The notes below the pieces were generated by a model. That model was not told the DNA's origin and made no database searches. It saw nothing but the letters and a program-made list of their open reading frames with translations. Positions 27,395 to 59,330 of a stretch of 64,000 nt of DNA are shown here, piece after piece. The stretch is from Cordylochernes scorpioides (lineage: Eukaryota > Arthropoda > Arachnida > Pseudoscorpiones > Chernetidae): assembly GCA_030710605.1 (NCBI GenBank), contig CP092865.1:35316244-35380243 (forward strand), in the 5' to 3' direction. Each line of letters starts with the position of its first letter. Within the stretch, counting starts at the first letter, position 1. Position numbers and translations under genes: made by a program.

Positions 27395-27765
27395 ATAGGA
27401 GATGCCTTTTTTTCTTTCCTTTTTTTAATGAACTTTATTCGAGTACAATATCACATTTATACTTTTTTTTTCACATTGATTGGCGTTCTCACGCAATTCT
27501 GGCCTTAACTACCCGTTCAATGATTTTTCAGGATGCCTAATTGGCTAGTTTTTTGACCGTTGAGGTACAGCTTGCACCACACTGACGAGGGCCAACAGCC
27601 CGAAACGCGTACGAGGTTGGCTTTTCTTGATTGATCAAGAATGAGTATTTGGCTAATTCTGGAAAAATTAAAAATCAACTAATAGTTTATATTTATACCG
27701 ATAGATGGCGCAAGCCATCAGAAACTTTCAATTGCCTGATAAAGAGTTGCCTTTATTTTTTTAAT
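27395..27765 (+). mobile_element. Hammerhead repeat family A, copy A1
   Basis: A single unit with the GATGCCTTTTTT block at both edges (27405 and about 27746, period about 341 bp). It has the family order: ACTTTATTCGAGTACAATATCACATTT-like start, CACGCAATTCTGGCCTTAAC, ribozyme, TTTTCTTGATTGATCAAGAA, AGATGGCGCAAGCCATCAG. No coding potential. The layout is that of a retrozyme-like repeat. Confidence 0.7.
27576..27617 (+). ncRNA. Hammerhead ribozyme, family A copy A1 (partly decayed)
   Basis: CTGACGA (27582-27588), stem II GGGC/GCCC with loop CAACA, GAAA, two-pair stem III (A-U, C-G closing GC), then GTA cleavage triplet and CGAGGT. Core and stem II are intact. Stem I (ACCACA against CGAGGT) has at least two mismatches, so cleavage may be weak or lost. 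Confidence 0.7.
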
Positions 27766-27879
27766 GGATCTAATTGTTCAATGGCGGAAGCTTAAATATT
27801 CATTTTATATTTTTAGTGTATTTTAATAAAAACTTTTAAAAATAATATTTTATATCAGTTAATCATGTATTTAATTTTA

Positions 27880-28141
27880 AGCCATTACTTCTAAATTTGT
27901 AAATATATTTTCCTATATTTTTATACAAAATGAAGTTGCGGGGGGATAAAATTCATGAACTAAAGAGCATATCCCACATAAATTATGCATCAGTACGACG
28001 CATACTACATATTATCACCTTAATAAAAGTCATTTACCACAACACCAGGTTTTGCCTAATTCAGACTAAAGGCCAACCTGTATACCATTGGGTTCGGGCT
28101 TTGTCCCTCATCAGTACAGGGGAGGTTTAGATTTCATAACA
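27880..28141 (-). mobile_element. Hammerhead repeat family C, copy C1 (minus)
   Basis: Minus-strand partner of C2: AAGTTGCGGG...ATTCATG at 27932-27957 is the complement of CATGAAT...CGCAACTT at 28594-28612. It carries its own hammerhead at 28077-28120. The right edge is interrupted by an insertion with a 14-bp duplication. Limits are approximate. Confidence 0.55.
28077..28120 (-). ncRNA. Hammerhead-like ribozyme, family C copy C1
   Basis: Minus strand: stem I CCTGTA paired with TACAGG (6 of 6), CTGATGA, stem II GGG/CCC with an imperfect inner pair, GAA, a short stem III with CC/GG and the triplet GTA. The position normally holding A (15.1, the last A of GAAA) is C here. An extra A in the stem III loop distinguishes it from C2. 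Confidence 0.6.
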
Positions 28142-28502
28142 ACAACAAAAAAAGCTTTATTAAGACAATTTAGTCTTATACGGATTCTCTAAGCACAGAA
28201 ATGTAGGGTACATACAATAATAACAGTAGTAACAACAACAAAAGTCCCTGTTATGACCTTTTGGTATTATACAACTTCTCCACGTAGAAGAGGGTATATA
28301 CAGGAGTAACAGAAATAGTTACAATAATTAGCAATGCTATTTACAATGTGTCAAGGGGAATAGTAGCAGGAAAGGGTCCGCTGGGGAACTAGAGTATTAA
28401 CATGGGTAGATGTTATTATATCTCTTGAGGAAAGATTACGCGACAATAAAGTTGGGATATCCAGCAGGTTAAGAAAGTATCCAAGGTGATTGGTGCGAAT
28501 GT
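28142..28502. mobile_element. 361-bp insertion flanked by a 14-bp duplication
   Basis: TAGATTTCATAACA occurs at 28128-28141 and again at 28503-28516. The 361 bp between begins ACAACAAAAAAAGC-like and contains several ACAACAACA runs. A 14-bp target duplication points to target-primed reverse transcription or a similar mechanism. There is no coding frame and I do not recognise the family. Neither end has an obvious poly-A tail in the expected direction. Confidence 0.55.
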
Positions 28503-28539
28503 ATAGATTTCATAACATCCTACGAATATTATGTACTAG

Positions 28540-28920
28540 GGTGATGCATTGTTCTGATGTGTATAATTAAAGGAAGAGTTACCTTTCTAGGTACATGAAT
28601 CTCCCGCAACTTAATGCCGTATTTTAGCCGAAAAATTGCCCCTTGCTATCTCACCAGTTTAAACCCCTGTTTGTAAATTTGACCGATTTCACAACCCCTA
28701 TCGTAGGATGCTAGGAAAACGAAGACGCCCCTGTACTGAAGAGGGCCAAAGCCCGAACCCATGGTATACAGGTTTGATTTTTGTCTGAAATTGCCTAAAC
28801 AATGTTGGGGATTATTCTTAATCAACTGTAGTAAAGGTTTTTACTGGGGCGATGTATTTAATGCATCGTTCTGATGCCTAATTAATAGGAAGATACCTCT
28901 TTTTAATAACATAAACTTTT
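28540..28920 (+). mobile_element. Hammerhead repeat family C, copy C2 (plus)
   Basis: GTTCTGATG with flanking GATGCAT and AGGAAGA blocks occurs at 28551 and again at 28868, a 317-bp direct period. One complete unit plus the start of the next is therefore present. The ribozyme lies in the middle. No coding potential. Confidence 0.65.
28730..28772 (+). ncRNA. Hammerhead-like ribozyme, family C copy C2
   Basis: Stem I CCTGTA/TACAGG is perfect. The core CTGAAGA fits CUGANGA, stem II GGGC/GCCC is perfect with loop CAAA, then come GAA, C and a CC/GG stem III with loop AT, and the triplet GTA. As in C1 the A of position 15.1 is replaced by C, giving a C-U opposition next to the cleavage site. Everything else is canonical. 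Confidence 0.65.
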
Positions 28921-30045
28921 ATTTTGTGCATATATAATATATGATGTTATATTTAACGCTTTTAAATTAGTGTAAAATTGTATTATAATTAATTTAAATT
29001 ATTATATATATTTCTAGCGATTATTTATACTTATTGTTCATATTACGTATTTATTATAAGCCACAAACAGCTACTTCTAATTTTCCTCTTATATATATAT
29101 ATACAAATACTATTCTATAGTCTATTACAGAACATCACGCTCACACATCTAGAGTTTGATCATTTTTACATTTGCGTTGTTAGCTTATAAGAGCAAGTGA
29201 ACGAAATTTTAGCCACAGACAAAGATCTGGATGTGTATGTATATTAAAAATTGTTCATAAATTTTTAAAACAAATATAGAAATTAGAGAGAGAATATAGA
29301 AAAAAAAAATTGTTTTTTTTAATATAGGTAGAAAACGAAAAATTTAATGGTCGTCTGAAATCGTAATAAATACTGTCACAGATATCTCTTGTATCAACAG
29401 GTATTAGCGTTAAACAAAAACAATTATTCGAGGTGCTGTTTTCTCTATATACTTTATCGACCTTCCTCGCCAAAAATTTACATAAAAGATTGTTAAAAGA
29501 AATTTACATAACAACTTGGAAAATGGATTTTATGAAATTAAAACTATTCAAATTTTATACAGTGACAATACTATTTATAGAATTTTAAAATAATAAGTTT
29601 TATATATATATATATAATTGTGTACACTTTTACGATATAAAACATTACTCGAACTGATATCCAGATAATTATGAATGTTTGTGATGTTTATTCCCTATAC
29701 GTTTCTAAATTATTAGACTTATCGAGATGAAATATTGACACCAAATAAAGATAGGTCTGTAAAGAGACAGTAGCAAGGTTTAGAGCTCGGAATATGTAAG
29801 TTTGCACAAAAATAGACTAATTCATACATTTCATTTCAAACGCAAGTAAAAAGCGAAACCGTTTTTCTCCCGTAATTGGCAGCCGGTATTCCCGGATATA
29901 TTTCTCACCGTAAAAAAATAGTTTTAAATTGCTTAATTTTTTTATTCCTTTACCAAATTGAAAATTTATAGCAAAATATAATTTAATATCGGAGTGGTGT
30001 CATATTTTTCTTGTGTGTGTTTTTTTTTTTTTAAGCCGAACAATT
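28921..30045. other. AT-rich DNA, no gene seen
   Basis: No coding or element ends recognised. A 72-codon minus frame at 29255-29473 lacks any motif. (TA)n runs occur at 29088-29104 and 29598-29618. The expected Tc1 5' inverted repeat upstream of 30046 is not visible. Confidence 0.4.
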
Positions 30046-31083
30046 ATGCCTCGTAGAAAACAGCGATGATCTTTTGATCAAGTATCCGAGTTCGACAGAG
30101 ATAGTGGCCTACCGAGATTGTGAATTATCTTTCAGGGAAATCGGTAGTCGTATTGGACAAACCCAAACAACTGTAATGCGGATATGTGATCGTTGGATGC
30201 AGGAAGGTACGACGGACCGACGTGTTCGATCGCATCCACTTCAGTGCCCTACTCCACGTGCTGACAGGCAAATTGTGCACATGGGAGAGACAGATCGCTC
30301 AGTCACATCACGAACCGTAGCAGAACACATTCAGTCTGCAACGCATCATCCAGCGTCTGCGCGTTCCATTCGAAGCCGTTTAGAGCAAATTGTCTGTCCG
30401 CAAGACGTCCATTAATTCGTCTACCCTTGACGCAGAACCACAGACGTCTCCGCCGCCAATGGTGCGATGAAAGAAGGAGGTGGGCGGCAGAATGGAATAA
30501 AATTGTCTTTACTGGCGAGTCATGCTTCTGTCTGCAACACTACGATGGTCGGATTCGAGTATGGAGACACCGTGGAGAGAGGATGCTGAACAGCTGAGTC
30601 ATGCACCGCCACACTGGTCTTGCACCTGGTATTATGGTATGGGGCGACATTGGATATCACTCTCTCACTCCTCTAGTACGCATTGTCGGTACTTTAAACA
30701 GCCAACGCTAAATTTCCGAAGTGTTGGAGCCAGTTGTCCTTCCTTACCTATAGGGCTTGCCCAAAGCCATATTTCAACAGGATAATGCGCGACCACACGT
30801 GGCACGCATTGTCCAAAGGTTATTCGTCAATCGCCAAATTGTATTGCTTCCCTGGCCGGCTCGCTTTCCGGACCTTTCGCCGATAGTAAACATGTGGTCC
30901 ATGGTTGCTCAACGATTGACCCAGATTACATCCCCATCTGCCACACCAGATCAACTTTGGCAACGACGTGTGGAAGCTGCTTGGTCTGCTGTACCCCAAG
31001 AACACATCCAAAGTCTCTTTGAATCAATGCCGAGGCGTGTGGCTAAGGTGATTTCCAACAATGGCGGCTACTCTGGTTACTGA
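30046..31083 (+). pseudogene. Tc1-family transposase pseudogene
   Basis: ATG at 30046 starts MPRRKQR and meets a stop at once. The frame resumes with helix-turn-helix sequence (IVAYRDCELSFREIGSRIGQ, VMRICDRWMQEGTTDRR, 30100-30230). Frameshifts at about 30400, 30600 and 30740 follow. The first catalytic aspartate (TDES) reads TGES (near 30515). The second is intact in FQQDNARPHVARIVQ (30770-30815). The final glutamate of DD34E (IENMW) is valine in SPIVNMWSM (30880-30900). Two of three catalytic residues are therefore lost. It ends with SNNGGYSGY and a stop. Confidence 0.9.
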
Positions 31084-31221
31084 TTCTGGCAGGAACCAAA
31101 CTTTGCAGAAGTCTATAAAATTAATCATTTGATACTTGGTCAACATGTTATCTACAAAATAAATTTTGTTGTGATATCTCTTGTCTTTCTTGGTGTTGCA
31201 ATTTGGGTGGCCAGCAGTTTA
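30046..31221 (+). mobile_element. Tc1-type transposon (5' terminus missing)
   Basis: The transposase gene is followed by a 3' terminal region ending GTTGCAATTTGGGTGGCCAG near 31200-31219. A matching 5' inverted terminus is not seen, so the copy is truncated or too diverged on that side. A second copy of the 3' terminus and its flank is at 33317-33560. Confidence 0.8.
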
Positions 31222-31260
31222 AATGTGCGTATATATATAATTATTACTTAATGAATAATA
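31222..31260 (+). repeat. Flank duplicated with 33500-33540
   Basis: ATGTGCGTATATAT and AATTATTACTTAAT continue the similarity beyond the Tc1 end in both copies, so more than the transposon was duplicated. Confidence 0.6.
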
Positions 31261-31580
31261 TCAACATATATAGTCACGACCGTCTTTTCACCGTCATGTC
31301 ACGGATGCGCGCGCATCATCATTATGATCATTATCATTATCTAATGATAATAATAATAATAATTATTATTATATTATTATTATTATTATCAACATATATA
31401 GTCACGACCGTCTTTCCACCGTCATGTCACGGATGCGCGCGCATCATCATTATAATCATTATCATTATCTAATGATAATAATATTAATAATTATTATAAT
31501 ATTATTATTATTAATATATATAGTCACGACCGTCTTTCCTCAATTCCTCATCGCTGTCACGGATGCGCGCGCACAGGGAG
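31261..31580 (+). repeat. Tandem 5'-end units of the Helitron (about 128/121 bp)
   Basis: ATATATAGTCACGACCGTCT recurs at about 31266, 31394 and 31514, each time followed by GTCACGGATGCGCGCGCA. Units 1 and 2 then have a long AT trinucleotide run (ATTATTATT and complement). The alternating GCGCGCGCA and AT runs should favour unusual DNA structures. Confidence 0.85.
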
Positions 31581-31793
31581 GTCACGTGCTCGCCGGCAGC
31601 CAACGGGCGCGCGCCGCCGGCATTACGTCATAGATTATAAACACAAGGTAATAAGGCCAAATAAAAAAATAGTGTGTGATAAGGCACAATTTGGATTATC
31701 TACTTATATAATTGCCTTATTCTGTCTGTGTGAAGTTCACTGTGTGAAGTTCAAGGATAGATTTTGGTCAGAATGGATAAAATAAAAAAAGTG

Positions 31794-31865
31794 TCAAGGG
31801 ATGGGAATCGAACCCACGACCTTCCGCTTACCGGGCAGATGCCATGACCACTAGGCTACCCTGGA
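31794..31865 (-). tRNA. tRNA-like gene (anticodon GGT, Thr-like), probably a pseudo-tRNA
   Basis: The minus strand folds as a 72-nt tRNA: acceptor TCCAGGG/CCCTTGA (6 of 7 pairs), D arm GCC/GGC, anticodon stem TCTGC/GCGGA with 7-base loop CCGGTAA, T arm GTGGG/CCCAT with loop TTCGATT. Pol III boxes are perfect: A box TAGCCTAGTGG, B box GGTTCGATTCC. Base 33 is C instead of the almost universal U, and the acceptor has one mismatch. It lies antisense inside a Helitron and is absent from the related Helitron at 34094-34816. It may be a captured tRNA gene or SINE head. Confidence 0.7.
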
Positions 31866-32053
31866 CATATTTTTCCGTTCACATTTTTATTTTTATATTT
31901 TCAAGACACACACAGTTTGGGGCGGGACGTTTCATAAGAGAGACATCCACGGCGCCAATTTATAATTGTAACGAATAGTATTTTAATTAAAACATTTTAA
32001 AAATATATACGCACTCGGGTAAAACCCGGGCGTTGCCCGGGCCATTCGTCTAG

Positions 32054-33316: not shown

Positions 33317-33615
33317 CGTGTGGAAGCGGTGATATCCAACAATGGCGGCTACTCTGGCTACTGATTCTAGCAGGAACCACACTTCGCAGAAGTCTATAAA
33401 TTTAATCATTTGATACTTGGTCAACATGTTATCTACAAAATAAATTTTGTTGTGATATCTCTTGTCTTTCTTGGTGTTGCAATTTGGGTGGCCAGCAGTG
33501 TATATGTGCGTATATATAATTATTACTTAATTAATAATATAATTTGTATATAAAAATAATTTAACTAACCTTCTATTACATACGACAACAAAATATCATC
33601 ATCAAAGTATACACG
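33317..33615 (+). repeat. Second copy of the Tc1 3' end plus flank
   Basis: GCGTGTGG, then TCCAACAATGGCGGCTACTC through GTTGCAATTTGGGTGGCCAG, repeats 31035-31220. The flank then continues as 31222-31260 joined directly to 32054-32130. This shows the pre-insertion state of the Helitron locus. Confidence 0.8.
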
Positions 33616-33798
33616 AGAAAAAAGATTTAGAACGAATATTTTAAATATACAACTTCAGACTATATCCAATACAATGAAGAAACAATGAGAGACTTACCGA
33701 TGGTGAGCCTTTCCAGCGATTTCGCCATTATGATCACCCATACCATTCCAATATTTGTGGGGCCAATATTTCCGACATATATAGGAAATTGTGACAAT

Positions 33799-34090
33799 CC
33801 AGGATATATTTACCACATAAAGCTTCAGAATTCAGTTCATGGCTTGTGAACTGCGATGGTTTTTAAACCTTTAAACAAAAAAAGTCGTGACAAGCCAGGA
33901 TATATTCACTACGCAGAGTTTTAGAATTCAGTTCGTGGCTTGTGTGAATTGCGATGGCTTTGATGCCTTGAAACCCAAGGAGTTGTAACAAGCCAGGATA
34001 TGTTTACTACATAAAGTTTTAGAATTCAGTTCATGGCTTGTGTGAACTACGATGATTTTGAAACCTTGAACTCCAAGGAGTTGTGACCAA
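33799..34090 (+). repeat. Tandem repeat, three units of about 97 bp
   Basis: Units start CCAGGATAT at 33799, 33895 and 33993. All contain TTCAGTTCATGGCTTGTG (or one-base variants) and end near AGTTGTGAC. Units differ by scattered substitutions, so the array is not recent. It directly abuts the Helitron start at 34094. Confidence 0.85.
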
Positions 34091-34093
34091 AAC

Positions 34094-45122: not shown

Positions 45123-45434
45123 ATTCCCTGAATTAGCTCTGGTCAAGGAGCGCCCAACCGTGCGGGAAATAGACGGTGGTCGTCCCCGCCGAGCATTCCG
45201 AATTAGCGAGTTTTAATCAAGTTTGGCTGGTTGTTGTAAACTGGATTTTTTACCTCCCTTTGATCAATTTCCAGGCTGTGGCGCTGACAAATTACTTCTC
45301 GATAGCGCCTATGGCGGCGCGCGCGCTGAACGATTATTATTTACCAAATACTAAATTTCATATTCTTTAACAATCGTATGATTAGTACTTTATATATGTA
45401 TATTTATATATTTTAAAAAACGAAAGAAAAAAAA
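45123..45434. other. GC-mixed spacer, no gene proven
   Basis: 45130-45330 is richer in CG (CGCCCAACCGTGCGGG, GCCTATGGCGGCGCGCGCGC) than its surroundings. It has a pyrimidine-rich stretch ending in CAG near 45272, like a splice acceptor. I cannot support an exon. Confidence 0.3.
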
Positions 45435-45917
45435 TCAGGTGTTGAAATCAATATTAAAAATGGCATATCCTGACCAGGAGCATATGTGCTTTACAGAAGG
45501 CAGAGCGCCATCTGGTGGAACAGTAATCAACTAAACATTGATTTAGCCAGTTCCCTTATATTTGGCCAACCCAATTTCTTGATAAATCAAGAAAAGCCAT
45601 CCACGAGCGCGTTTCGCGCTTTTGGCGCTCGTCAGCGTGGAGTAGGCTGAACCATTGCGACCAAAAATATTTTTTGATCCCAATGGCTTCCTGAAAAACC
45701 AAGAAATGGGTATTTAAGGCCAAACTTGCGTAAATACGCTTAGCACATTAAAAAACAAAAGAAAAAATAAAATATAAAAAGATCAGGTGTTGAACTCAAT
45801 ATTAAAAATGGCATATCCTGACCAGGAGCATATGTGCTTTACAGAAGACAGAGCGCCATTTGGTGGAACAATATCAACTAAACATTGATTTAACCTGTTC
45901 CCTGATATTGGGTTGGA
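45435..45917 (-). mobile_element. Hammerhead repeat family B, tandem copy B1
   Basis: ATCAGGTGTTGAA, ATGGCATATCCTGACCAGGA and the following AGAGCGCC block recur at 45435 and 45783, a 348-bp direct period. One full unit and the start of a second are present. The second is cut at about 45917 where a mariner remnant begins. The ribozyme is on the minus strand. No coding potential. Tandem copies of a ribozyme unit of this size are the expected form of animal retrozymes. Confidence 0.75.
45600..45641 (-). ncRNA. Hammerhead ribozyme, family B copy B1
   Basis: Minus strand: stem I TCCACG/CGTGGA (6 of 6), CTGACGA, stem II GCGC/GCGC with loop CAAAA, GAAA, then CGCGCT. The U of position 16.1 is C here, giving an A-C opposition in the two-pair stem III. 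One base away from canonical. Confidence 0.75.
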
Positions 45918-46829
45918 CAAAAAGGACTTCCTTTTAGAGCCATTTTGAGTTTTGGAAAGAGAAAAAAAAATCAATTGGAGCTAGGTCTGGGGAATAGGAA
46001 TGTTGTTGAAGTATTTGGATGCCGTGTTTAGCCAAATAAGTCAGTACAGATGTAGCGGTGTGTGGTGGTCCATTATCATGATGGATAATCCAATTTTTGG
46101 AACTCCACATTTCACTTCTTTTCAGACGAATTGATTCACGTACACGTCTCATAATGTTTAAATAAGACTCCTTATTGATTTTTTTACTTTCCTTTAGATA
46201 TTCATAATGCACAATTCCCTTTATGTCAAAGAACGTGACCAATAAGACTTTGTTTTTTGACTTGCAAAGTCGGGATTTCTTCGCTCTTGGTTCATCTTTT
46301 ATTTCCAATCCATGGATTGGCGTTTTGTTTCCGGGTCATACCCGTGACCCCATGTCTCGTCTCTAGTTATTACTTTTCCCTTCCAATTAAGGGTTTCTTC
46401 CACCATTTCAAGCATTTTTTTGACAACTTCAACGTGATTCTCCTTTTGTTGGATTGTGAGCATTTTAGGGACAAATTTTGAAGGTGTCTTCTTTAACTGC
46501 AAGTCTTCTTTAATTATGGATCCAACTAATGATTTTGATATCCCTGTTTCTTCCTTAATGTCCCGTAACCCTATTCGTGGATTTTCTTTTATCAAATTTG
46601 AAATTTGGCTCACCTTTTCAGGGTTCCTGTGCGGAATTGGACGTCAAATACGCTTCTCATCTTTCACCGATTCCATTCCATTTTTAAATCGTGAAAACCA
46701 TCTAAATGTGGTCGGTTTATTTACATTTTCATTTCCAAATGCCAATTACAACAAATCTAAAGTTTCTGAAGCCGATTGCCCAATTTTGTAGCAAATTTTA
46801 ATACAAATTCGTTGTTCGAATTTTCTATC
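45918..46829 (-). pseudogene. Mariner transposase pseudogene (M3)
   Basis: The minus-strand start near 46829 (MDRKFEQRICIKF) is followed by a stop in the first 25 codons. Long frames are at 46299-46613 (SQISNLIKENPRIGLRDIKE, then VITRDETWGHGYDPETKRQS) and 45934-46308 (HHDNGPPHTA and SPDLAPIDFFF). The first catalytic motif GDETW has become RDETW, with its aspartate kept, and the second and third aspartates are present. One frameshift separates the frames. The C-terminal 70 or so residues are lost by the truncation. Confidence 0.85.
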
Positions 46830-47030
46830 CATTACAAATTAGAAGTTGTTATGCAAGGCGTTCTTTTTACAAGCTTACAATTTATCGATTGCGCGCGCAA
46901 TCACGTGATGTCATATACCGCAGTGTAGCTGAAGCCTTCTGTATTTTTTAATAGACTTAAAAATATAAATAATTTCATTTTTTCTTTGTTTTTGACAGGT
47001 CTCATTATTTATTGGACACACCTTGTATAT
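45918..47030 (-). mobile_element. Mariner element M3 (3'-truncated)
   Basis: Same family as M2. The right terminus ATTTATTGGACACACCTTGT is intact near 47010-47030. The left side breaks off inside the transposase at AAAAGGAAG (plus-strand CTTCCTTTT, 45927-45935), where M2 continues for another 230 bp, and joins a family B repeat. No left inverted terminus. Confidence 0.85.
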
Positions 47031-47039
47031 ATCCTTAGT

Positions 47040-47430
47040 TTATTTCTGTTCCACACAAGATGGAGCTCTGCCATCTAAAAAGCTCATGTGCTCGTGGTCA
47101 GAATAAGCTTTCTTTGTTTTTAATATCAACACCTGACCTTTTATTTTGTTTCTATCATTTTTACATGTTAAGCGTATTTCGCAAGTTTGGCTTTGAATAC
47201 CCATTTCTTGTTTTCTCAAGAGGCTTCTGGGATAAAACATTTTTTGGTCGCAGTGGTACAACCTGCTCCACGCTGACGAGGACCAACAACCCGAAACGCG
47301 TTCGTGGATGACTTTTTTTTTTCTAATCAAGAAAATAGGTTGACCAAATATCAGGTAACAGGCTAAATCAACGTTTAGTTGATTTATGTTCCGCTAGATG
47401 GCGCTCTGCCTTCACACGAGCAGCTTATTT
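47040..47430 (+). mobile_element. Hammerhead repeat family B, copy B2
   Basis: Plus-strand copy, opposite to B1. The block TTCC...AGATGG...GCTCTGCC occurs at about 47049 and 47390 (period about 340 bp), so slightly more than one unit is present. Contains CGCAAGTTTGGCTTTGAATA, the ribozyme, and AATCAAGAAAATAGGTTG. It begins right beside the intact end of mariner M3. Confidence 0.75.
47267..47308 (+). ncRNA. Hammerhead ribozyme, family B copy B2
   Basis: Stem I TCCACG/CGTGGA (6 of 6), CTGACGA, stem II GGA/CCC with one A-C mismatch at the third pair, GAAA, CGCG stem III and triplet GTT. All core bases are canonical; only stem II is weakened. Confidence 0.8.
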
Positions 47431-50751: not shown

Positions 50752-52632
50752 CTAGGTAGGTTTAGAAGGGTGGGAGTGGGCACCAGGCGGTGATTCAGGC
50801 CCAGGAACCTGCAGGCACCGACGAGAGGTAGGTTTAGAAGGGTGGGAGTGGGCACCAGGCGGTGATTCAGGCCCAGGATGGAGGAGGCCTGCTCCCAGAG
50901 CTCCAGTAGGGGGCGACGACGTGGCGGCAGTCAATCCCCCCAAAGACATAGGAGCCATCCAGACTCCACTCTCCACCAGCCATGAGTAGGCGTTTCGGCT
51001 TCCAGCCCTGCGTGCGGTCTGGACCCCCTTGAAGCAGGCAAGCTGAAGCTGAGTCTTGATGTCCAGTAATCCAACTCCACCGACGGACACGGGACGAACC
51101 AGAACAGTACCCGGAATCCAGGCGGCCCGATAGCAGGAGCCCCAGGCAAACCGAGTCAGCCTGGCCTGCATTTTGGTGTTGGTAGTGTCGCTGGGCAGAT
51201 AGGCGTGCAGATGGTGTAGCACTGATGCCAGCACCAGCGGGTTGGCCGCTCTCGCTCGGCCGACAAGCGAAAATCCGCGGATGTAGGGAGACCACCTGTA
51301 GATCGCTCTCTCCAAGACGCCCAGCAAATGACTTTCCTGGATCGCAGTTCCATGAGCAGTTGATATTTCACATCCCAGGACCATGATGGAGGATGATGAC
51401 CACGTGATGCCCAAAGGAGAGTCGGCGTCGTTCTTCCAGGCGCCGCACCTCAGCCCTTTGCTCTTGGAGAAGTTCACGCCAACCCTTGACGCACGACGGA
51501 AATCGTCAAAGATGGACTTGGCTTCCTCAAACTGCCAATCTTCTCGGATTAGAAGGAGTATATCATCGGCGTACACCAGGACGTTGCCTCTTCGCAGAAC
51601 TCTTTCAAGATAGCGCAGGAGTGGACCCGTAAAGATAGAGAAGAGGGCGGCACTGGTGGCACAGCCCTGCCGAAGCCCTATGTGCAGTTTGAACGGGCGG
51701 GTGTGGTTGCCATCGATTCGAACTGTTGCATCAGCCCCTCCATAAAGTAGTTCAAACCACTTTGCGAAGGCGGGAAGCAGGCCGATGAAGCGCAGCTGCA
51801 AGATCAGGATTCCACGGTCCACTTGATCAAAGGCGGAGTGCAGATCAGTAGAGATGACTGCCAGCGGCGTTTTATTCCTCGTGGCGATGGCGAGCTCGTC
51901 AGACACATAGCCGATGTTCCAAGAAAAACATCTTCCCGGAACGGCGTAAGTCTGACAATCCGCAACGATGGTAGGCAGGTGAGGGCGCAGACGACCGTGA
52001 AGGATGCCGCTGACGATTCTGTGGTCCGTTGTTGGTAACACTATTGGCCGGTATGCGCTCAGGCCCAAACCACCGGGCGCCTTGGGGACGATACAGATGA
52101 GGCTTCTCCTTGATGAATGTGGCAGAGCCCCAAGGAGCCTGGATTCCTCAAGAACTCGATGAATAGATCCTGCAAAGAAGTCATCAAAGCCCTTCATCAT
52201 CTCGCAGGGCAGGCTGTCCCAGCCAGTTGTTTTGCCTTGTGGCAGGCGGCGGATTGCAGCCTCAACTTCGTCTAAGGAGATGCTCTCTCGGTAAAGTGGG
52301 TCCATATCTTCCAGCAATATCCTTTCTGTCGCTCCTTCTAAAAATACAGCGACATTCTCTGAGGGAAGAGTTGAGCTGGCGAACCGTTCGCTGAAGGTGT
52401 CAAAGACCAGGCGTCTCAATGGCTCTCCCCCGATGAGGTTCCCCTGAGCATCGAAGACTGTCGTCGGTTCCGAGCTATGATGTCTGACACGTAGGACGCA
52501 CCCAAGCTCGGGAAGTGAAGGATGGTCGGCCTCCACGGACTCGGCTTCAAGCAGAGAGCGTAAGAACCGGCTGGCTCTAGTGACGTAGTCGTCCTCAACG
52601 CGGGCAGTAGAGAGACACTTATGTCGGAACAA
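50752..52632 (-). pseudogene. LINE reverse transcriptase (626-codon open part of ORF2)
   Basis: Open over 626 codons, but part of a longer broken ORF2. Motifs in order: LPQGKTTGWDSLPCEM (fingers), APGGLGLSAYRPIVLPTTDH, motif A ISTDLHSAFDQVDRGIL, motif B GLRQGCATSAALFSIFTGP, motif C with catalytic VYADDILLLI, then VLGCEIS (motif D/E). The C-terminal part has RFAWGSCYRAAWIPGTVLVR and PVSVGGVGLLDIKTQ, the pattern typical of the Tx1/L1 group. All catalytic aspartates are present. The enzyme would copy element RNA at a nicked target. The last about 50 codons run into a local 72-bp duplication. Confidence 0.9.
50754..50897 (-). repeat. 72-bp tandem duplication inside the LINE
   Basis: AGGTAGGTTTAGAAGGGTGG through GGTGATTCAGGCCCAGG occurs at 50754 and again at 50826. 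It duplicates 24 codons (PGPESPPGAHSHPSKPT appears twice in the frame). Local and recent. Confidence 0.9.
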
Positions 52633-53601
52633 GATTCCCCTTCACTTTGTCCCAATTTCTCCACAGTTCTCCAGGGGTTATGTCTTCGAGGTACCGCGAA
52701 GTATACTTGAGGAGAGCCGCTACTATCTAAAAGACTAGCGCCGAACGAAGAAGCGCAGAAACGGGAGTTGCTTGAATCTCAGGGGAATCCCCCACTTGGA
52801 GAAGGATGGCACGGTCTGAGGCGCGGTATTTGAGGGTCCAGTAACGGGTGATGCGTTCGGAAAGCCTTGATGGTATAGGACTCTATCCAAACGGGCAGCA
52901 TCAACCCGGCTTCCGTAGCTGGCAACCCTCGTAGGCAGATGCGCGGCTCAAAACAAAATGGCGGTATCAACGAGGTTGGTCCGGTCTAGAAATTCCGCGA
53001 GGGCTTCGAATGAACCAGATACAATGTCGCTAAGAGACTCCTCGGAGATGTTTAGGTCCCCGACGATCCACGTATCTTCTTTGATTGCTTCATCTGCGAT
53101 GACTTGCAGTTCAAAATGCCGTTTTTCAGGAGTATGAAACAAGTGACAATTGATGACACGGGTTTCGAGACCCCGGACGCTGAAGCTGACCATGGCAACC
53201 TTGCCTGGCCATAGGACGCGGTGCCAAAAGACGGTGACTCCCGGCGTAACGATGATAGCGAGACCGGATCCCCTGGGAGTCGACACTGACGCGAAGACAG
53301 CCCTGTAGCCAAGGCAGAGGTCCCGAACATTGTCCAGGGCCAGGAGGTTTGTTTCCTGGACAACTGCGAAGTCAATTGCGTGCTGCTTTAAGAAACAGCA
53401 AAGTTCCATACTCCTTTGACGAATGGCAATGCCGCGCACGTCGAGGCACGCTATGCGGAAGCTCATAGCGTGCTCTTGTTTGTTGACACCCGAAGGTTGG
53501 TGAGCCGCTTGTAGAGTGTGCATGACTTGTCCTCTACAAGGTAGATTACTGGCTGAAGAATTGGTTCTGAGTTTCCATCTGCTCAGCCGATCGGTCTTCA
53601 A
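52633..53601 (-). pseudogene. LINE apurinic-type endonuclease (N-terminal ORF2)
   Basis: 53601-52948 is open: IACLDVRGI, FAVVQETN (catalytic glutamate motif), GLAIIVTPGV, ETRVINCHLFHTPE and WIVGDLNISEE (GDxN-type motif). A stop follows right after DTAILF. In the same frame the sequence continues with AHLPTRVASYGSRVDAARLD and RVLYHQGF. This corresponds to the SR(V/I)D segment of the endonuclease end. Further stops near 52720-52660 precede the reverse transcriptase frame. The nuclease would nick target DNA to prime reverse transcription. Confidence 0.8.
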
Positions 53602-53980
53602 GAAATTTTAACTTTTGAGGACGGGAGAATATGGCTTGCATAATGTCATCCCGCTTCAAACCTACGTTTTCAGTGTTCTTGAACAAATTGATGGAGGACC
53701 GTTCAATAATTCCTTTTAGTTGTTTGAGAGCCACCGACCTCTCCAAACGCGATTCTTTAGAGGGCTCCTCCTCCTCTTTGTTCAAGGGAATTTGCTTAAT
53801 CTTGGAGCCAGGTGGCGATTTCAGGGTGGGAAGCGTAGACGTGGGCTGAATTTTCTTCTCAGTGGTTGACCGGCCAGCCACTGGTGTAGTCGCGGCTGCG
53901 ATGGGTGATATCTGTTGGGCGGGTGGAGACATCGCGGAGGTGAAAAGTTGATTTAGCCTTTTCTCTGATATTTGGCCCAC
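53546..53980 (-). pseudogene. LINE ORF1 with a chimeric N-terminus
   Basis: 144 codons. Residues from MSPPAQQ (about residue 17, 53932) onward are LINE-like: Pro/Thr-rich, then basic and acidic stretches (KSPPGSKIKQIPLNKEEEEP) and a helical C-terminus (KSRLERS-like, LKQLKGIIERS). The first dozen residues (MGQISEKRLNQLF) are encoded by the adjoining ribozyme repeat, whose other copies read the same. The genuine start is therefore more likely the internal methionine. No RRM or zinc knuckle is visible, so ORF1 appears shortened. It overlaps the start of the ORF2 frame. Confidence 0.5.
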
Positions 53981-54150
53981 CCAATTTTTGATAAATCAAC
54001 AAAACCTATCCACGACGGCGTTTCGCGATGTTGGCGCTCGTCAGCGTGGAGTAGGCTGTACCACCGCGACAATAAATATTTTTGGTCCGAGAGGCTTCTT
54101 GAGAAACAAGGAAATGGGTTTTTAAAGCCAAACTTGCGCAATACGCTTAA
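53951..54150 (-). mobile_element. Hammerhead repeat family B, copy B3
   Basis: TTGATTTAGCC, TATTTGGCCCACCCAATTTT, the ribozyme, then GCCAAACTTGCGCAATACGC match other B copies. Truncated to about 200 bp, with the LINE 5' end directly at its left edge and in the same orientation. Confidence 0.7.
54009..54050 (-). ncRNA. Hammerhead ribozyme relic, family B copy B3
   Basis: Stem I TCCACG/CGTGGA (6 of 6), CTGACGA and GAAA are intact. Stem II has lost its outer complementarity (GCGC against TCGC). Stem III reads CGCCGT, so the A15.1-U16.1 pair is gone. It lies about 75 bases upstream of the LINE ORF1 methionine, on the same strand. Confidence 0.65.
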
Positions 54151-54650
54151 AACATGCAAAACCTTTTTCTTTGAAGTCTTTCGCTTATAAAGAAATGATG
54201 TTTTATAAATCCTTCCTTAAAACATGTTTCAAAGGTATTTAAAAATACTAAGGAATAAGTCTTAGAAATGATAATTTATAATTTATAGAAACCCTACTAT
54301 ATATGGGAGTATATACTTCAATGGATTCAAGTGTATATGACAGTACTAATATCAGAGCTGTTGACATTGAGATTCTGGATAAAAGATCAGGTTAGACTAT
54401 CATTATTCTTAAGAAAATCGTAGGAGATAAAGGAGATGTTTAATATTTAAAAATTTGGCATATTTACCTTCTCCATATGATGACAATTAGATTTATTACA
54501 TTTCATGTTTTTTGGGTTCGCACAAACATGAGATAATAATATATCAGATAGTCTTCCAAAAGATATCAATTATAAAAGCTCTGTGATAGAAAATTTGAAA
54601 CCTTGATGTCATTTAAATTACTTACACTATTCTCGTTGATTTTTTATTAT
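54151..54650. other. AT-rich DNA, no gene seen
   Basis: No supported feature. Confidence 0.4.
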
Positions 54651-55095
54651 TCCAGAATTGTTCAAGTTGCAGTTGCACGATAAAGATATGCTTTTTTTTT
54701 TCATAATTTATGCACCTTATCCAAGTACAATATCACATTTGTATTATTTTTCCACATTGTGTCGCGCTCTCACGCAATTCTGGCCTTAACTACTCGTTTC
54801 ATGTTTTTCAGGATGGCTGAATGACCAGTTTTTCGGTAGTTGAGGTACAGCTTGCACCACGCTGATGAGGGCCAACATCCCGAAACCCGTACATGGTTAG
54901 CTTTTCTTGATTAATCAAGAATGGGTATCTGGCCAATTCTGGAATAATTAAAATTCAACGAGAATAGTGGATATTTATTCCGATAGATGGCCAAGCCATC
55001 AGCAACTTTAAGTTGCACGATAAGGAGGTGCCTTTTTCAGAATTTATGCACCTTATCCCAGTACAATATTGCATTTGTACTATTTTTTCATAATT
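54651..55095 (+). mobile_element. Hammerhead repeat family A, tandem copy A2
   Basis: AGTTGCACGATAA with the following GCACCTTATCC(C/A)AGTACAATAT block occurs at 54671 and 55011, a 340-bp direct period, so one whole unit plus about 85 bp of a second are present. Order inside: CACGCAATTCTGGCCTTAAC, ribozyme, TTTTCTTGATTAATCAAGAA, GATAGATGGCCAAGCCATC. The left edge has an inverted scrap (CTATTCTCGTTGAT against ATCAACGAGAATAG at 54953). Confidence 0.75.
54856..54897 (+). ncRNA. Hammerhead ribozyme, family A copy A2
   Basis: Stem I ACCACG/CATGGT (5 of 6, one C-A mismatch), CTGATGA, stem II GGG/CCC with loop CCAACAT, GAAA, stem III A-U and C-G closing CC, triplet GTA. Every core base is canonical, so this is a good candidate for an active ribozyme. 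Confidence 0.8.
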
Positions 55096-55689
55096 AATTT
55101 CGTTTATTTCATTGAGCGCAGCGCTCTGATATGGTCCAATATGCTTTTCCCCTCGGTCTCTCCTTTCAAAAATTGTCTTTCCTTGCGCCAACGTTCGAAA
55201 CGATAAGAAACGATAGTGTTTCCAAATATAAAAACGTATAATAAGAAGATAAAACATGTAAGAATAACATTGATTGAATGATGCCAAATTATAAGATTTG
55301 AAATAAATTTAAAAATAAGTTTAAAAAGAGGAGTAATAAATACACGCATCAGTTATAACACCGCAATAATATAAAAATAATTCAATAAAACCATTTCAGG
55401 GCTCTTTTGAATAAATAGAAGTATAGGTTGTTCATTAGTTCAAATTTAAATTTTGGATGGTAGAGACTCGTATTATTTACGTTTAAAGTATAAAGGTTGC
55501 AATATGTTCTCGCTCAGTATCTGTGCGTAAATTACGCTCTTAGATAACGTACTACTTGGACCTGAAGTCCTACATAGAGTGAATGATGAAAGCTTCAATT
55601 TGAAACTTTACCCTGAATTGAAGAATGCCTGCATCAAATCGGTGATCAAATATAAATATATCATTTCAATCAGCATCTTAAGTTTCTCT
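55096..55689. other. AT-rich DNA, no gene seen
   Basis: Two overlapping minus frames (54955-55287, 55104-55349) are not recognisable. The first merely runs through the A2 repeat. Confidence 0.4.
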
Positions 55690-55910
55690 ATAGAAAATAG
55701 GACATTTCATTAGAGGTTTTTATTTCATTGACAAGTTTTGAAGATATATTTTGTCATCTTCAGGATCAAATTAAAAACAAAATATTCGACAGTATATATT
55801 TGAGGTTCATAAGTATTCTTTGTATTTTGTTTCAAATTTAGCATTAGCTTTTTCTAAAGAAATATGAATTCCAGGTAGAGGTATCCTTTTATTATTAACT
55901 TTCATTAATT
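55690..55910 (-). repeat. Decayed 3' end of a Penelope-like element
   Basis: On the minus strand, CCTGAAGATGACAAAATATA, then CTTC, then AAAAC and TTGTC recall the hammerhead-like hairpin of PLE 3' ends. On the plus strand, AAAGAAATATGAATTCCAGG and TAGAGGTATC near 55857 resemble the closing block of PLE-2 at 8109-8145. No coding part is left. Confidence 0.4.
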
Positions 55911-56340
55911 ATTTTTATCATAACTCCGATAATAATTAAATATATTCCTAAAATGTTTAATCTTGAGAACTATTATAAAGAAAAAATTAAAAACACAGAT
56001 CAAACATGTTAAAATAATTAGTAATTTTTTAAAGCTTAAATAAAATTATTTTCATTATTTTTATAAAAGTCATATTTAGAAAATGTTCTGTTTAATTAGA
56101 TTTTTTTATTACTGTGTGTATGTGTAAGACCATGTGATGTATAATTTGAAGCTACTCTATATTTTATATTAATTTATATAAGAAAATTATGAATATATGT
56201 CATAATTTGTATATAATTGTATGCACCTCCGACCCACTATGCATGTACAATGTATGATTTTCAAAGATTTAATAAAGAATAAGGTAACTGGAGGAAAGAA
56301 AGTAGCAACAAAACATAGGAAATAGGTTTAAAGCGGGCAC
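55911..56340. other. AT-rich DNA, no gene seen
   Basis: No supported feature. Confidence 0.4.
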
Positions 56341-56354
56341 AATTATAAATAACT

Positions 56355-56800
56355 TGTACAGTCAATACTTCCTGACAGAAGGCCGGACGTATCTAGTGAC
56401 CGCAGAAGTTATATTAGTCGAGAAACACTCAATACTTCCTGGCAAAGCAGGACGTATCTGGTGACCAGAAGTTATAAAAGTAGAGTTTTGGCTTCCAACA
56501 AGGTGACATCGGCTCTGGACCTCTCTCCCTCTGCTCATCCCGTAGCTAAGTACAATCACCGCCATGTGATCAGATAATTAATAATCAAAACCCGCTCCGC
56601 CTTCTCAAGCTTTCTTTCCTCCAACCCAGTTGCCTTTTATTTTCAAACCCCATCACGTGTCCTGATTACTCCTAACTGTGTGCTTCACTTGCCACTCAAC
56701 GACTGCGCTTCAACCAATCCTCACCATTCAAATCGAACAACAAGAAATTCCGCAACGATATTGTCACAGAACGGTTAAGTCGACAGGATTCTACAACAGT
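56355..56800 (+). repeat. Possible solo LTR
   Basis: Starts TGTACAGTCAATACTTCC, has an internal imperfect duplication (TCAATACTTCCTG...GGACGTATCT...GTGACC twice, 56360-56470), a TATAAAAG box at 56474, a C/T-rich transcribed part, and ends CGACAGGATTCTACA. GGACAGGATTCTACA also follows element D copy 1 at 17244. No paired LTR is found, so this stays tentative. Confidence 0.35.
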
Positions 56801-56862
56801 GTAATACATCAAATATTGCAGTGTAATAACATTGGATATATTACATATATATATACACACAC

Positions 56863-57225
56863 TTGCTCTCGTGGTCAGGAAATGCCTTATTTATTTTTAA
56901 TATATATATATCAAAAATAAAAATGGCATATCCTGACTAGGAGCACATGTGCTTTACAGAAGGCAGAACGCCATCTGGTGGGACAGAAATCAACTAATCA
57001 TTGATTTAGCCTGTTCCCTGATATTTGGCCAACCCAATTTCTTGATAAATCAAGAAAAGCCATCCACGAACGCGTTTCGCGCTTTTTGGCGCTCGTCAGC
57101 GTGGAGTAAGCTGTACCACTGTGACCAAAAATATATTTTGGTCCCAGAGGCTTCTTGAAAAACCAAGAAATAGGCATTTAAGGCCAAACCTGCGTAAATA
57201 CGCTTAACAAATGGCAATATGAAAG
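56863..57225 (-). mobile_element. Hammerhead repeat family B, copy B4, with fold-back end
   Basis: Full B order on the minus strand, through CCAAACCTGCGTAAATACGC. At the left edge GCTCTCGTGGTCAGGAAATG (56862) is the rough complement of CATATCCTGACTAGGAGC (56927), making a snap-back of about 40 bp around a TA-rich centre near 56903. Similar in kind to the palindrome in the family A insertion at 16520. Confidence 0.75.
57063..57105 (-). ncRNA. Hammerhead ribozyme, family B copy B4 (canonical core)
   Basis: Minus strand: stem I TCCACG/CGTGGA (6 of 6), CTGACGA, stem II GCGC/GCGC with loop CAAAAA, GAAA, stem III of two pairs (A-U, C-G around GC), cleavage triplet GUU, total 43 nt. No core base deviates. 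This is the best-preserved ribozyme in the window. The minimal stem III is like those known from PLEs and retrozymes. GUU is a permitted but slower triplet than GUC. Confidence 0.85.
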
Positions 57226-57235
57226 AAAAAGAAAA

Positions 57236-57960
57236 GGTAATTTAAACCAACAACCTCATATTGTATATAATATAACAAGATTTCCATGTTGTATAACACA
57301 TGATTGACATATGTCATTACATCACATCATCATATGTGATGTACTTTGTACAAACTGAGGATAAATAAATAAAACTCTGTAATAGATTAAGAGTTGAGCT
57401 AAAGCAAGAGATTGAGATAGAAGTCCAAAAACGTCAAATATCGAGGCTTACACGATGTCAGGGCGTTGCCAGAGTGTACAATATATCTTCCGATCCACGA
57501 TCTTATAGCATCCGCTGAAACCCAATACTTCCTCTCGGCAAAGATACATAAGCCTCCAACAGGGCCAGGAATAAACAGTCACTTCACCATCGGTGCAAGC
57601 CCTCGTCGGTGGTTGTGTTCAAGGTCCACCTCATCGACCATGTAGAACAGTAAGAACTCTTCTATCTCCACATTTCGCTCCTAGCTCGACTTTTATCTGT
57701 TCATGGAACTTTCCTAGTACAACTGTGTCTCTTCGTTTTTTGTGTATGGACATTTTCAAGTCTTCCACTCTGCTTCGACCACGACTGCCTGCACTCTGTG
57801 AGAACTGTTAAAGGTGTTCCAAGGTGCAGAGAGGTACTGGAAAACTCTCCACGCCCTGACTGTCCCTCTCGGTTACTACAGGTTTGCCCCTCTCGGTTAC
57901 CACACCACAGCGAGAGACCCTCGGTTAACACAGTATAGCGAGAGTCGACATGATTTCACA
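57236..57960 (-). repeat. Dispersed element D, copy 2
   Basis: Uninterrupted relative of 16370-17285, including GTACTTTGTACAAACTGAGG and GATTAAGAGTTGAGCTAAAG. It holds the same minus-strand peptide region (KVELGAK, then EEFLLFYMVDEVDL, 57600-57700) with stops. It carries a single AATAAAACTCT at the point where copy 1 has the ribozyme-repeat insertion. Confidence 0.5.
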
Positions 57961-58035
57961 CCATATATATATATATTTAAAAAAGATGCATATATTGGAT
58001 TTCTAATTATTTTTATTGTTCCAATATTTCGAGGG

Positions 58036-58068
58036 GCAACTCGCCTCTCTTTATCGAGGATGTTTGTG
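58036..58068 (-). ncRNA. Decayed hammerhead-like hairpin downstream of PLE-3
   Basis: Minus strand: TCGATAAA, stem GAGAGGC/GCCCCTC (6 of 7) with loop GAGTT, then GAAATATTGG. It occupies the same place relative to PLE-3 as the hairpins of PLE-1 and PLE-2. CTGATGA is not intact, so it is at best a relic. Confidence 0.35.
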
Positions 58069-58353
58069 TTTTTCACTAGAACACGCGCGCACGCGTATAC
58101 CACTCTCGTTCTACAAGGCCAATGAAAGAACTGTATCTTTGACTCAACTATTGCCTTCAGTTTATATACAGTAAATAATTATATTTATATTTAATATTAT
58201 AGATTATTATTTTATCTATGGAAGATATAGAGATTTATATACAACACAGTGTAATTGTAAAAAATTGTGTTTACATATTAATTCTAAATTAAAAAAATTT
58301 AAAGCAAAATAAATTATTAAATAAAAGGTATATACATAGATATTTATAAATAA

Positions 58354-59105
58354 TTAAGATATGAATTCTTTATAAATTTCTGGAAAATCAATTTTTCTGT
58401 TTATACTCTGTTTATCTTCGGCAGAAGCCCAACTTTCTAAAAACAGTCTACTATGCTTTTCTGTTATGTTTTTGTATATAATTGTGGTCTGTTTGAAATC
58501 TGGTATATGGCTATTGTTTAGGGAGTGGTCTACTAGTAGGGATAATGGTTTGTAGTTTTTTAAAGCTGCTTTATGTTGATTGATACGATCTTTAAGTGAT
58601 TTACCTGTTTCTCCAATGTATGTAGCTTGACATGTCTGGCAGGGAATTTTGTAAATTACATTGGTTGTATTTTCTTGGTTTGAAATATTTTTTGTATCTG
58701 AGTGGCGTAATATTTGTCTTAGATTTTGTGCAGATTGATATGTTGTAATTATATTGTATCTCTTTAAAATTCGGGCAATTCTCTCCGAACCGTAGCTATA
58801 TGGAATAGAGCAATATCTTTTTTGAGACTGATCACGACTATTATTTGAAGGTATATCTCTCTGTTTATAAAAATGTTTTTCAATAAATTTTTTTGGATAA
58901 TTATTATTTATTAATTCTTTGAAAATTCTATTTCTTTCTTCTGTTGCACTATTTCTATTTGAATGGTGTGTTTCTATTCTTTTAGAAAGAGATTTCACTA
59001 CGGCTATTTTGTTATGTATGGGACCAAAGGAGCTAAAATTCAAATAGTTTCCGGTGTGAGTGGGTTTCCTGTAAATGCAAGTTTCGATGTTATATTGATT
59101 CCTTT
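58354..59105 (-). pseudogene. Penelope-like element PLE-3, C-terminal part
   Basis: The minus strand begins near 59105 with IETCIYRKPTHTGNYLNFSS, the thumb end of a PLE reverse transcriptase. It passes through SLSKRIETHHSNRNSATEER and IPYSYGSERIARILKRYNI, and ends with the GIY-YIG endonuclease (NVIYKIPCQTCQATYIGETG, then SLKDRINQHKAAL and NNSHIPDF). 229 codons (59043-58354) are open without a break. The catalytic reverse transcriptase part is missing by 5' truncation. The sequence differs strongly from PLE-1 and PLE-2, so a second PLE family is present. Confidence 0.85.
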
Positions 59106-59124
59106 TAAGGTATATATATTAAAA

Positions 59125-59330
59125 AGAAAGAAGCCTGATCCACGCTTACGAAGGCCTACAGCCCGAAACGCGTTCGTGGATGGCTTTTCTTGATTTATCA
59201 AGAAAATGGGTTGGTCAAATATCAAGGAACAGGCTAAATCAACGTTTACTTGATTTTTTTCCAATAGATGGCGCTCTGTCATCTAATAAGCACATGTGCT
59301 CCTGGTCAGGATATTTATTGTATTCAGTAA
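59125..59330 (+). mobile_element. Hammerhead repeat family B, copy B5
   Basis: GGCTTTTCTTGATTTATCAA, AATGGGTTGGTCAAATATCA, GGCTAAATCAACGTTTACTT and AGATGGCGCTCTGTC follow the family B order on the plus strand, ending near CTCCTGGTCAGGATATTT (59300). It directly abuts the truncated 5' side of PLE-3. Confidence 0.65.
59139..59180 (+). ncRNA. Inactivated hammerhead, family B copy B5
   Basis: Stem I TCCACG/CGTGGA (6 of 6), GAAA, CGCG stem III and GTT are intact. The core reads CTTACGA instead of CTGACGA (G5 to T), which should abolish cleavage, and stem II begins with an unpaired A. Confidence 0.65.

What the first reader, a model, noticed from the sequence alone, without database searches (positions are those of the whole stretch)
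27395..59330. Three families of retrozyme-like elements (A, B, C) in one window
Families A (period 340-341 bp), B (340-348 bp) and C (317 bp) are short, non-coding, partly tandem, and each carries one hammerhead per period: A at 27576 and 54856; B at 45600, 47267, 54009, 57063 and 59139; C at 28077 and 28730. A and B share layout (ribozyme, then a TTTTCTTGATT-like motif with TCAAGAA, then an AGATGGCGC block). Unit-length direct periods around a self-cleaving motif are what circular-RNA-mediated retrotransposition would leave. I have not seen this set described together, but I cannot search.
Basis: partly seen in the sequence, partly recalled or inferred. Interest (0 to 1): 0.9.

Follow-up and report, generated by a model that had tools for sequence, protein, structure and literature searches.

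The report
Small ribozyme elements with Penelope-type insertion scars
This stretch of animal-like DNA holds old copies of small non-coding mobile elements that carry self-cutting hammerhead RNAs, a known kind called retrozymes, and the way several of them sit in the DNA points to Penelope-type retrotransposons as the machinery that copied them.

Summary
In detail: all nine listed hammerhead-like motifs are there, with periods near 340, 340-348 and 317 bp. The interpretation needs correcting. A and B are related subfamilies; C is separate and weaker. Copies are 0.3-1.5 units long, not arrays. The ribozymes are minimal, Penelope-type: stem III is a palindrome (ACGCGU) too short to close in one strand but able to pair in an RNA dimer. 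Most are decayed; only B4 fits my full descriptor.

Copy A3 has a 12-bp target duplication (empty site in the window), head-to-head arms and a tail on one arm only, the published Penelope arrangement. D, C, A2 and the E/B5 boundary also show head-to-head order.

Best reading: non-autonomous, ORF-less retrozyme-like units copied by Penelope-type machinery from circular or uncut multimeric RNA. Retrozymes, minimal Penelope hammerheads and the idea of PLE mobilisation are in print. Possibly new is the physical evidence: Penelope scars on an ORF-less ribozyme unit and a possible PLE/unit chimera. One clean TSD only; no RNA data; host genome unreachable.

The parts
27399..27760 (+). A1: 1.05 units of family A, hammerhead core at 27582; a looser alignment to B runs on to 27827, so the 3' end is uncertain
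54663..55090 (+). A2: 1.27 units of family A, period 340, hammerhead core at 54862, ends with the tail
54625..54660 (-). A2L: short inverted arm, head-to-head with A2
   Evidence: 94% over 36 bp
16520..16729 (.). A3: head-to-head fold-back of two 5'-truncated A pieces (left arm -, right arm +), ribozyme part absent; right arm 58 unit positions longer (tail)
16508..16519 (+). Left copy of the 12-bp target-site duplication AAATAAAACTCT of A3
   Evidence: empty site in the related repeat at 57236-57444
16726..16737 (+). Right copy of the 12-bp target-site duplication of A3 (its first bases also match the A unit)
45413..45912 (-). B1: about 1.4 units of family B, period 347-348, hammerhead core at 45635
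47035..47413 (+). B2: 1.1 units of family B, hammerhead core at 47273; inverted relative to B1, with a left-truncated mariner between them
53943..54161 (-). B3: 0.64 unit of family B, hammerhead core at 54044; ends just before the first ATG of the ORF upstream of a LINE, same strand
56910..57230 (-). B4: 0.92 unit of family B with the only hammerhead that meets every descriptor rule (core at 57099)
56860..56951 (.). Tail-to-tail inverted repeat at the 3' side of B4
   Evidence: 80% over 92 bp
59132..59314 (+). B5: 0.53 unit of family B, mutated core at 59145, starts where PLE fragment E begins in the opposite direction
27923..28141 (-). C1: left arm of the C fold-back, hammerhead-like motif (core 28114, GAAC); resumes for about 8 bp beyond an insertion
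28524..28915 (+). C2: right arm of the C fold-back, period about 317, hammerhead-like motif (core 28736, GAAC)
4522..6168 (-). D, left copy: 5'-truncated PLE with GIY-YIG ORF 4893-5723 and hammerhead-like motif at 4602 downstream of it
6169..8115 (+). D, right copy: PLE with GIY-YIG ORF 7086-7697 and hammerhead-like motif at 8035 downstream; inverted repeat of the left copy from 6441 on; 6169-6440 read by eye as its upstream coding part
58354..59133 (-). E: 5'-truncated fragment of another PLE (GIY-YIG), 32% identical to D over 262 columns

Best explanation
A, B and probably C are old copies of non-autonomous, ORF-less, retrozyme-like elements with a unit of about 317-348 nt. Proposed cycle: a multimeric RNA is transcribed; two minimal hammerheads pair through the palindromic stem III and through stem I in trans and cut it to unit length; a ligase closes the unit. 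Alternatively the multimer stays uncut. The RT and GIY-YIG endonuclease of a Penelope-like element open an AT-rich target and start copying at T-rich sites inside the unit, in some events from both DNA ends. This leaves 5'-truncated arms head-to-head, a tail on one arm and a target duplication of about 12 bp. Shown here: the units, the ribozyme folds with compensatory changes, head-to-head arms, one tail, one TSD with its empty site, and PLE relics in the same window. Inferred: cleavage in cells, circularisation, and PLE as the source of the enzyme.
For: Ribozyme stems: 87.4% of cells paired against 36.6-45.7% for slid structures, and 7 cells changed on both sides against 0-1; of 500 column shuffles 0 reach the paired percentage, the double-change cells or the covariation score. 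The unconstrained two-strand fold of B4 (-42.7 kcal/mol; two separate strands 2 x -18.2 = -36.4) has stem I and the palindromic stem III between the strands and stem II within each. All 7 of 7 A/B copies that reach the ribozyme run through the predicted cut site, 4 of 7 cover every unit position, and the nearest copy end is 40 nt from the cut. A3: 12-bp TSD with empty site, head-to-head arms, one-sided tail, as in Penelope copies with an inverted pLTR, 8-10-bp TSDs in the cases cited and an optional 31-bp tail on one inverted pLTR (PMC3846280 passages). PLEs D and E lie in the window. E homology ends at 59133 and B5 begins at 59132.
Against: A clean TSD was found for 1 of 11 end definitions tested, none for E/B5. 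The shuffle control is less clear for pairs with double changes (9 of 500 reach it) and fails for pair types (218 of 500); the structure was drawn on one of the seven sequences, which favours it over the slid versions. The B4 dimer MFE also pairs A14 with U17, and the strict double hammerhead that I drew, without the outer helix, has -34.5, weaker than two monomers. A 3' ends form two clusters (4 of 5, random 0.5-0.7%) only if A1 ends at 27760; with A1 moved or dropped the random rate is 19% or 12%. B 3' ends do not cluster (0 of 5). B4 has a tail-to-tail repeat. A3, the cleanest insertion, lacks the ribozyme segment, and its tail of 58 positions is longer than the 30-40 bp in print. No partner PLE is identified: D and A2 share 11 of 13 bases near their 3' ends, no more. 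PMC11167929 found that ribozyme mutants insert normally in vitro, that the ribozyme cut only with protein added, and no RNA-seq reads ending at its cut site. Circular folds are unusual for B1 (z -6.4) and A2 (z -3.0), not for A1, B2 and C2 (z -0.6, -1.0, +1.5; 60 shuffles each).
Confidence: 0.65

Rival explanations
1. A, B and C are solo or fragmentary pseudo-LTRs of autonomous Penelope elements whose ORF copies lie elsewhere in the genome.
For: PLE pLTRs carry minimal hammerheads (PMC7761336, PMC6155905 passages), occur inverted with tails and TSDs, and solo pLTRs exist (PMC3846280 passages). E lies directly beside B5.
Against: A1, A2, B1 and B2 run from unit to unit with no break at any position, which leaves no fixed place for an ORF. 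Between the E ORF and the next repeat no B match appears at E 5 or better.
Confidence: 0.22
2. The units are SINE-like elements or satellites mobilised by a LINE, such as the one at 50-54 kb.
For: B3 lies directly upstream of the LINE coding region on the same strand. Its RT matches PDB chain 8c8j_A best and human-type LINE-1 ORF2 chains next.
Against: Head-to-head arms with a one-sided tail are a Penelope trait; the A3 ends are T-rich, without poly(A). Sharing of 3' ends with this LINE was not tested. One adjacency may be a template jump or chance.
Confidence: 0.08
3. The motifs are chance or degenerate look-alikes with no ribozyme history (credible only for C).
For: C has a C-U mismatch at 15.1-16.1 in both arms, model scores no better than unrelated places (C1) or slightly better (C2), and no unusual circular fold.
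Against: Shuffle controls and compensatory changes for A and B. By eye the two C arms, 81% alike, keep stem I, stem II and the order of the core.
Confidence: 0.04

Closest known systems
Metazoan non-LTR retrozymes (Cervera and de la Pena 2020, PMC7229834; abstract, one part, two sections and passages read)
   Same: Non-coding units of 170-400 nt with a type I hammerhead in each, GC below 50%, TSDs longer than 4 bp when present, PLEs with minimal hammerheads in the same genomes
   Different: Here the ribozyme is of the minimal type that the paper assigns to PLEs and Terminons; copies are at most 1.5 units; circular RNA is untested
Penelope-like elements with minimal hammerheads (PMC7761336, PMC6155905 and PMC3846280 passages; PMC11167929 main text)
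   Same: Minimal hammerhead, head-to-head inverted arms, tail on one arm, short TSD, partial tandems
   Different: A and B have no recognisable ORF and close on themselves at about 340 nt; D in this window is a true PLE relic
Small hammerhead variants linked to PLEs that cleave RNA as dimers (a title seen only as phrases counted in papers that cite it; not held; authors recalled as Lunse, Weinberg and Breaker)
   Same: By its title, PLE-linked small hammerheads acting as dimers
   Different: Cannot be compared in detail
Plant LTR retrozymes (PMC4918200, listing only)
   Same: Non-autonomous elements with hammerheads, thought to spread as circular RNA
   Different: Plant ones have LTRs, 4-bp TSDs and type III hammerheads (as stated in PMC7229834)

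Membership tests
Metazoan non-LTR retrozyme | Unit of about 150-450 bp without ORF | tested here: met
   Units about 340, 340-348 and 317; A1, A2, B1, B2 close on themselves, C2 also runs past one unit. Stop-to-stop frames of up to 117 aa overlap some copies; four of them were searched and match no Pfam family
Metazoan non-LTR retrozyme | Type I hammerhead in each unit | tested here: met
   A and B: 7 copies with compensatory stems, 1 of 7 meets every rule; C weak
Metazoan non-LTR retrozyme | Stable stem III within one strand (reported for most invertebrate retrozymes) | tested here: not met
   2 bp with a 2-nt gap in one strand; the palindrome pairs in a dimer. Amphibian retrozymes are also said to need dimers (PMC7229834 abstract)
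Metazoan non-LTR retrozyme | Loop-loop contacts between stems I and II | not tested
   Stem I has an internal loop; contacts not examined
Metazoan non-LTR retrozyme | Tandem copies | tested here: inconclusive
   Partial tandems only, A1 1.05, A2 1.27, B1 about 1.4, B2 1.11 units; no arrays
Metazoan non-LTR retrozyme | GC below 50% | tested here: met
   37.6-40.1% for five units
Metazoan non-LTR retrozyme | TSD longer than 4 bp when present | tested here: met
   12 bp for A3, 1 of 11 end definitions, empty site
Metazoan non-LTR retrozyme | Unit-length circular RNA in tissue | not testable with these tools
   No RNA data
Penelope-like element (D) | GIY-YIG endonuclease ORF | tested here: met
   PF01541, E 1.4e-7 and 3.9e-7
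Penelope-like element (D) | Telomerase-like RT in the same ORF | tested here: inconclusive
   Upstream ORF pieces reach no Pfam RT model; an open frame at 6169-6417 has RT-like motifs by eye and recall only
Penelope-like element (D) | Hammerhead and inverted arrangement | tested here: met
   Core motifs at 4602- and 8035+, not meeting the strict descriptor; 94% inverted repeat 4522-6168 / 6441-8115
Penelope-like element (A, B, C) | RT and GIY-YIG ORF between pLTRs | tested here: not met
   No break for an ORF in A1, A2, B1, B2
Penelope-type integration (A3) | Head-to-head arms, tail on one arm, short TSD | tested here: met
   searches compared with PMC3846280 passages; tail longer than in print

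The most novel reading that the evidence does not exclude
The E/B5 boundary is one chimeric integration: Penelope machinery extended one DNA end on a PLE RNA and the other on a retrozyme-like RNA. That would be a genomic fossil showing that PLEs mobilise hammerhead units in trans. Because the A3 and A2 3' ends lie downstream of the cut, the long copies also imply a circular or uncut template.
Probability: 0.32. Interest if true: 0.65.

Novelty: new variant of a known kind. Interest (0 to 1): 0.48.

Why it matters
Which enzyme spreads animal retrozymes is open: PMC7229834 calls PLEs a strong candidate, on shared traits and co-occurrence. Penelope-type insertion scars on an ORF-less hammerhead unit, and a junction between a PLE and such a unit, give a physical signature that can be counted in any assembled genome. 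They also bear on the form of the template, since copying that starts downstream of the cut can only give long copies from an uncut or circular RNA. If the pattern fails genome-wide, the candidate weakens.

Tried and rejected
Shared 3' end between PLE D and the units (the SINE-LINE kind of evidence): A2 shares 11 of 13 bases near the D end; the highest-scoring match, to C2 (11 of 12), lies inside the D ribozyme stem, not at its end. Not claimed. TSDs for A1, A2, B1/B2, B4, B5, C and D: only 6-8-bp matches in AT-rich flanks; B3 none. TSD for E/B5: longest match 9 bp, partly inside B5. Remainder of B3 beyond the LINE, which would show a LINE insertion into B: none found. Relatives of the B ribozyme in IMG/VR: 0 matches for two patterns; the tool warns that records of the window's own genome may be left out. 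The MIR1919 and MIR390 Rfam matches at 16539-16657 lie on the A3 palindrome and are read as an artefact of it. B1/B2 as a clean fold-back interrupted by a mariner: downgraded, because that mariner lacks its left end. Clustering of A 3' ends: kept only as a hint, since it depends on A1. My notebook gives 28131 for the C1 core; 28114 is right.

Not in print: I found no held paper describing Penelope-type fold-back scars on retrozymes in searches (25 of 41 listed; 14 of 14; 15 of 15; 25 of 28; 15 of 16; 7 of 7; 15 of 226). These cover open-licence PMC papers only; apart from five papers read in part I saw listings.
Full report
What was checked. The window looks like animal DNA and is crowded with transposons: GIY-YIG ORFs of Penelope-like elements, a LINE, a gypsy-type element and mariners. 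The endonuclease part of the LINE was recognised by eye only; Pfam found nothing in it.

The motifs. All nine listed hammerhead-like motifs are present. CTGACGA...GAAAC occurs 7 times against 0.035 expected from shuffles. That count misses A2 (CTGATGA), B5 (CTTACGA) and both C motifs (GAAC), and includes two new ones, 4602- and 8035+, which belong to a Penelope-like element here called D. The alignment of the seven A/B ribozymes shows stem I of 6 bp plus an outer 3 bp beyond an internal loop, stem II of 4 bp, and stem III reduced to 2 bp with 2 nt between. Four pairs changed on both sides: 22-64 in stem I (A-U in A, U-A in B), 36-47 in stem II (G-C in four copies, C-G in three), and two in the hairpin after the ribozyme, both in B2 alone, where the alignment is uncertain. 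Slid controls give 0 or 1. Column shuffles are exceeded on three of five measures outright, marginally on one (9 of 500) and not on pair types (218 of 500). The set is seven related sequences, and the structure was drawn on one of them.

Decay. Only B4 meets every rule of the strict descriptor. Mismatches: stem I in A1 and A2; its outer part in B2 and B3; stem II in A2, B2, B3 and B5; stem III in B1 and B3; core in B5. C1 and C2 share a C at 15.1. D fails the descriptor too; on my reading stem I has 3 bp before a bulge. Copies of B differ by about 10-21%. These are old copies; present activity is not shown.

Dimer form. The stem III strand of B4 is the palindrome ACGCGU. The unconstrained two-strand fold of B4 has -42.7 kcal/mol against -36.4 for two separate strands. 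It pairs stem I and stem III between strands and stem II within each, with stem III one pair longer at each end (A14-U17) than in an active hammerhead. The strict double hammerhead that I drew, without the outer helix, has only -34.5. So the dimer is plausible, not proven. Passages in PMC6155905 and PMC7761336 describe Penelope hammerheads as minimal, usually lacking helix III and possibly acting as dimers.

Units. A1 spans 1.05 units, A2 1.27, B1 about 1.4, B2 1.11, B3 0.64, B4 0.92 and B5 0.53 (one search prints 1.48 for B1 because its alignment includes a gap). A1, A2, B1 and B2 cover every unit position, so no ORF fits between units. Four stop-to-stop frames that overlap copies match no Pfam family. 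A and B align over nearly the whole unit at 63-66% and are best seen as subfamilies. GC is 37.6-40.1%.

Insertion anatomy. A3 is a 94% inverted repeat over 159 bp, two A pieces head-to-head. A related repeat at 57236-57444 lacks it, and the 12-bp AAATAAAACTCT flanks A3. The right arm runs 58 unit positions further than the left. PMC3846280 (passages) describes Penelope copies completed by an inverted pLTR, with TSDs of 8-10 bp in the cases it cites (others have none), an optional 31-bp tail on one of the inverted pLTRs, and head-to-head as the most frequent order. PMC11167929 (main text) shows two RT start sites that explain the tail, and cleavage and extension of both strands. The A 3' ends hint at two such sites, at unit positions 37-39 and 92-95, but only if A1 ends at 27760 (4 of 5 ends, random 0.5-0.7%; otherwise 12-19%). 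B 3' ends do not cluster.

Other junctions. The D copies form a 94% inverted repeat, 4522-6168 against 6441-8115. The 272 bp between contain an open frame that I read, by eye and recall, as the upstream coding part of the right copy, which would put the junction at 6168/6169. The C arms meet near 28525 once an insertion of about 375 bp, flanked by the 13-mer TAGATTTCATAAC, is set aside; the gain in alignment is only about 8 bp (score 155 to 166). A2 has a 36-bp inverted arm on its 5' side. E is homologous to D up to 59133, and B5 starts at 59132 in the opposite sense. Three PLE fragments of this window, used as queries, found no PLE sequence beyond B5; they do not cover a whole PLE. Either one integration used two RNAs or B5 landed at the edge of E by chance; no TSD decides it. 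B1 and B2 are inverted around a mariner that has lost one end, so their original junction is unclear. B4 is the exception, with a tail-to-tail repeat.

Template. All 7 A/B copies that reach the ribozyme continue through the cut site, and the nearest copy end is 40 nt away from it. A linear unit cut at both ends would not give that. A circle or an uncut multimer would; the window cannot tell these apart.

Verdict. Retrozyme-like units inserted in the Penelope way is the best reading (0.65). As a class they are known. The minimal ribozyme in an ORF-less closed unit, with Penelope scars, is a variant that I did not find in the searches named in Tried and rejected. PLE mobilisation is proposed in PMC7229834 from shared traits and co-occurrence; the scars and the E/B5 boundary are a different kind of evidence, from few copies in one window.

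Noticed in passing
53943-54161 and 50752-53995: The end of B3 lies about 15 nt before the first ATG of the coding region of a LINE on the same strand, so a hammerhead-bearing piece sits where a 5' UTR would be. One copy only: template jump, chance or a true 5' UTR.
   Followed up: partly
8875-9659 and 13828-14612: Two 785-bp direct repeats, 99.6% identical, about 4.2 kb apart: look like the LTRs of a recent LTR retrotransposon.
   Followed up: no
28141-28516: Insertion of about 375 bp inside the C left arm, with the 13-mer TAGATTTCATAAC at both sides; no relative of 60 bp or more in the window at E 1e-6.
   Followed up: partly
23470-23667: Degenerate A/B-like direct repeat in which no hammerhead was found (69-78% identity), perhaps an older relative.
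   Followed up: partly
61171-61205: Isolated match of 35 bp to the hairpin region of A (84%), no hammerhead found beside it.
   Followed up: partly
59512-59581: GC-rich inverted repeat that triggers weak microRNA models.
   Followed up: no
24938-26274 and 45927-47030: Two mariner copies 93% alike over 1113 columns; the second lacks its left end and separates B1 from B2.
   Followed up: partly
31258-31539: AT-rich tandem array of period 128 bp not far from a tRNA gene at 31793-31865.
   Followed up: no
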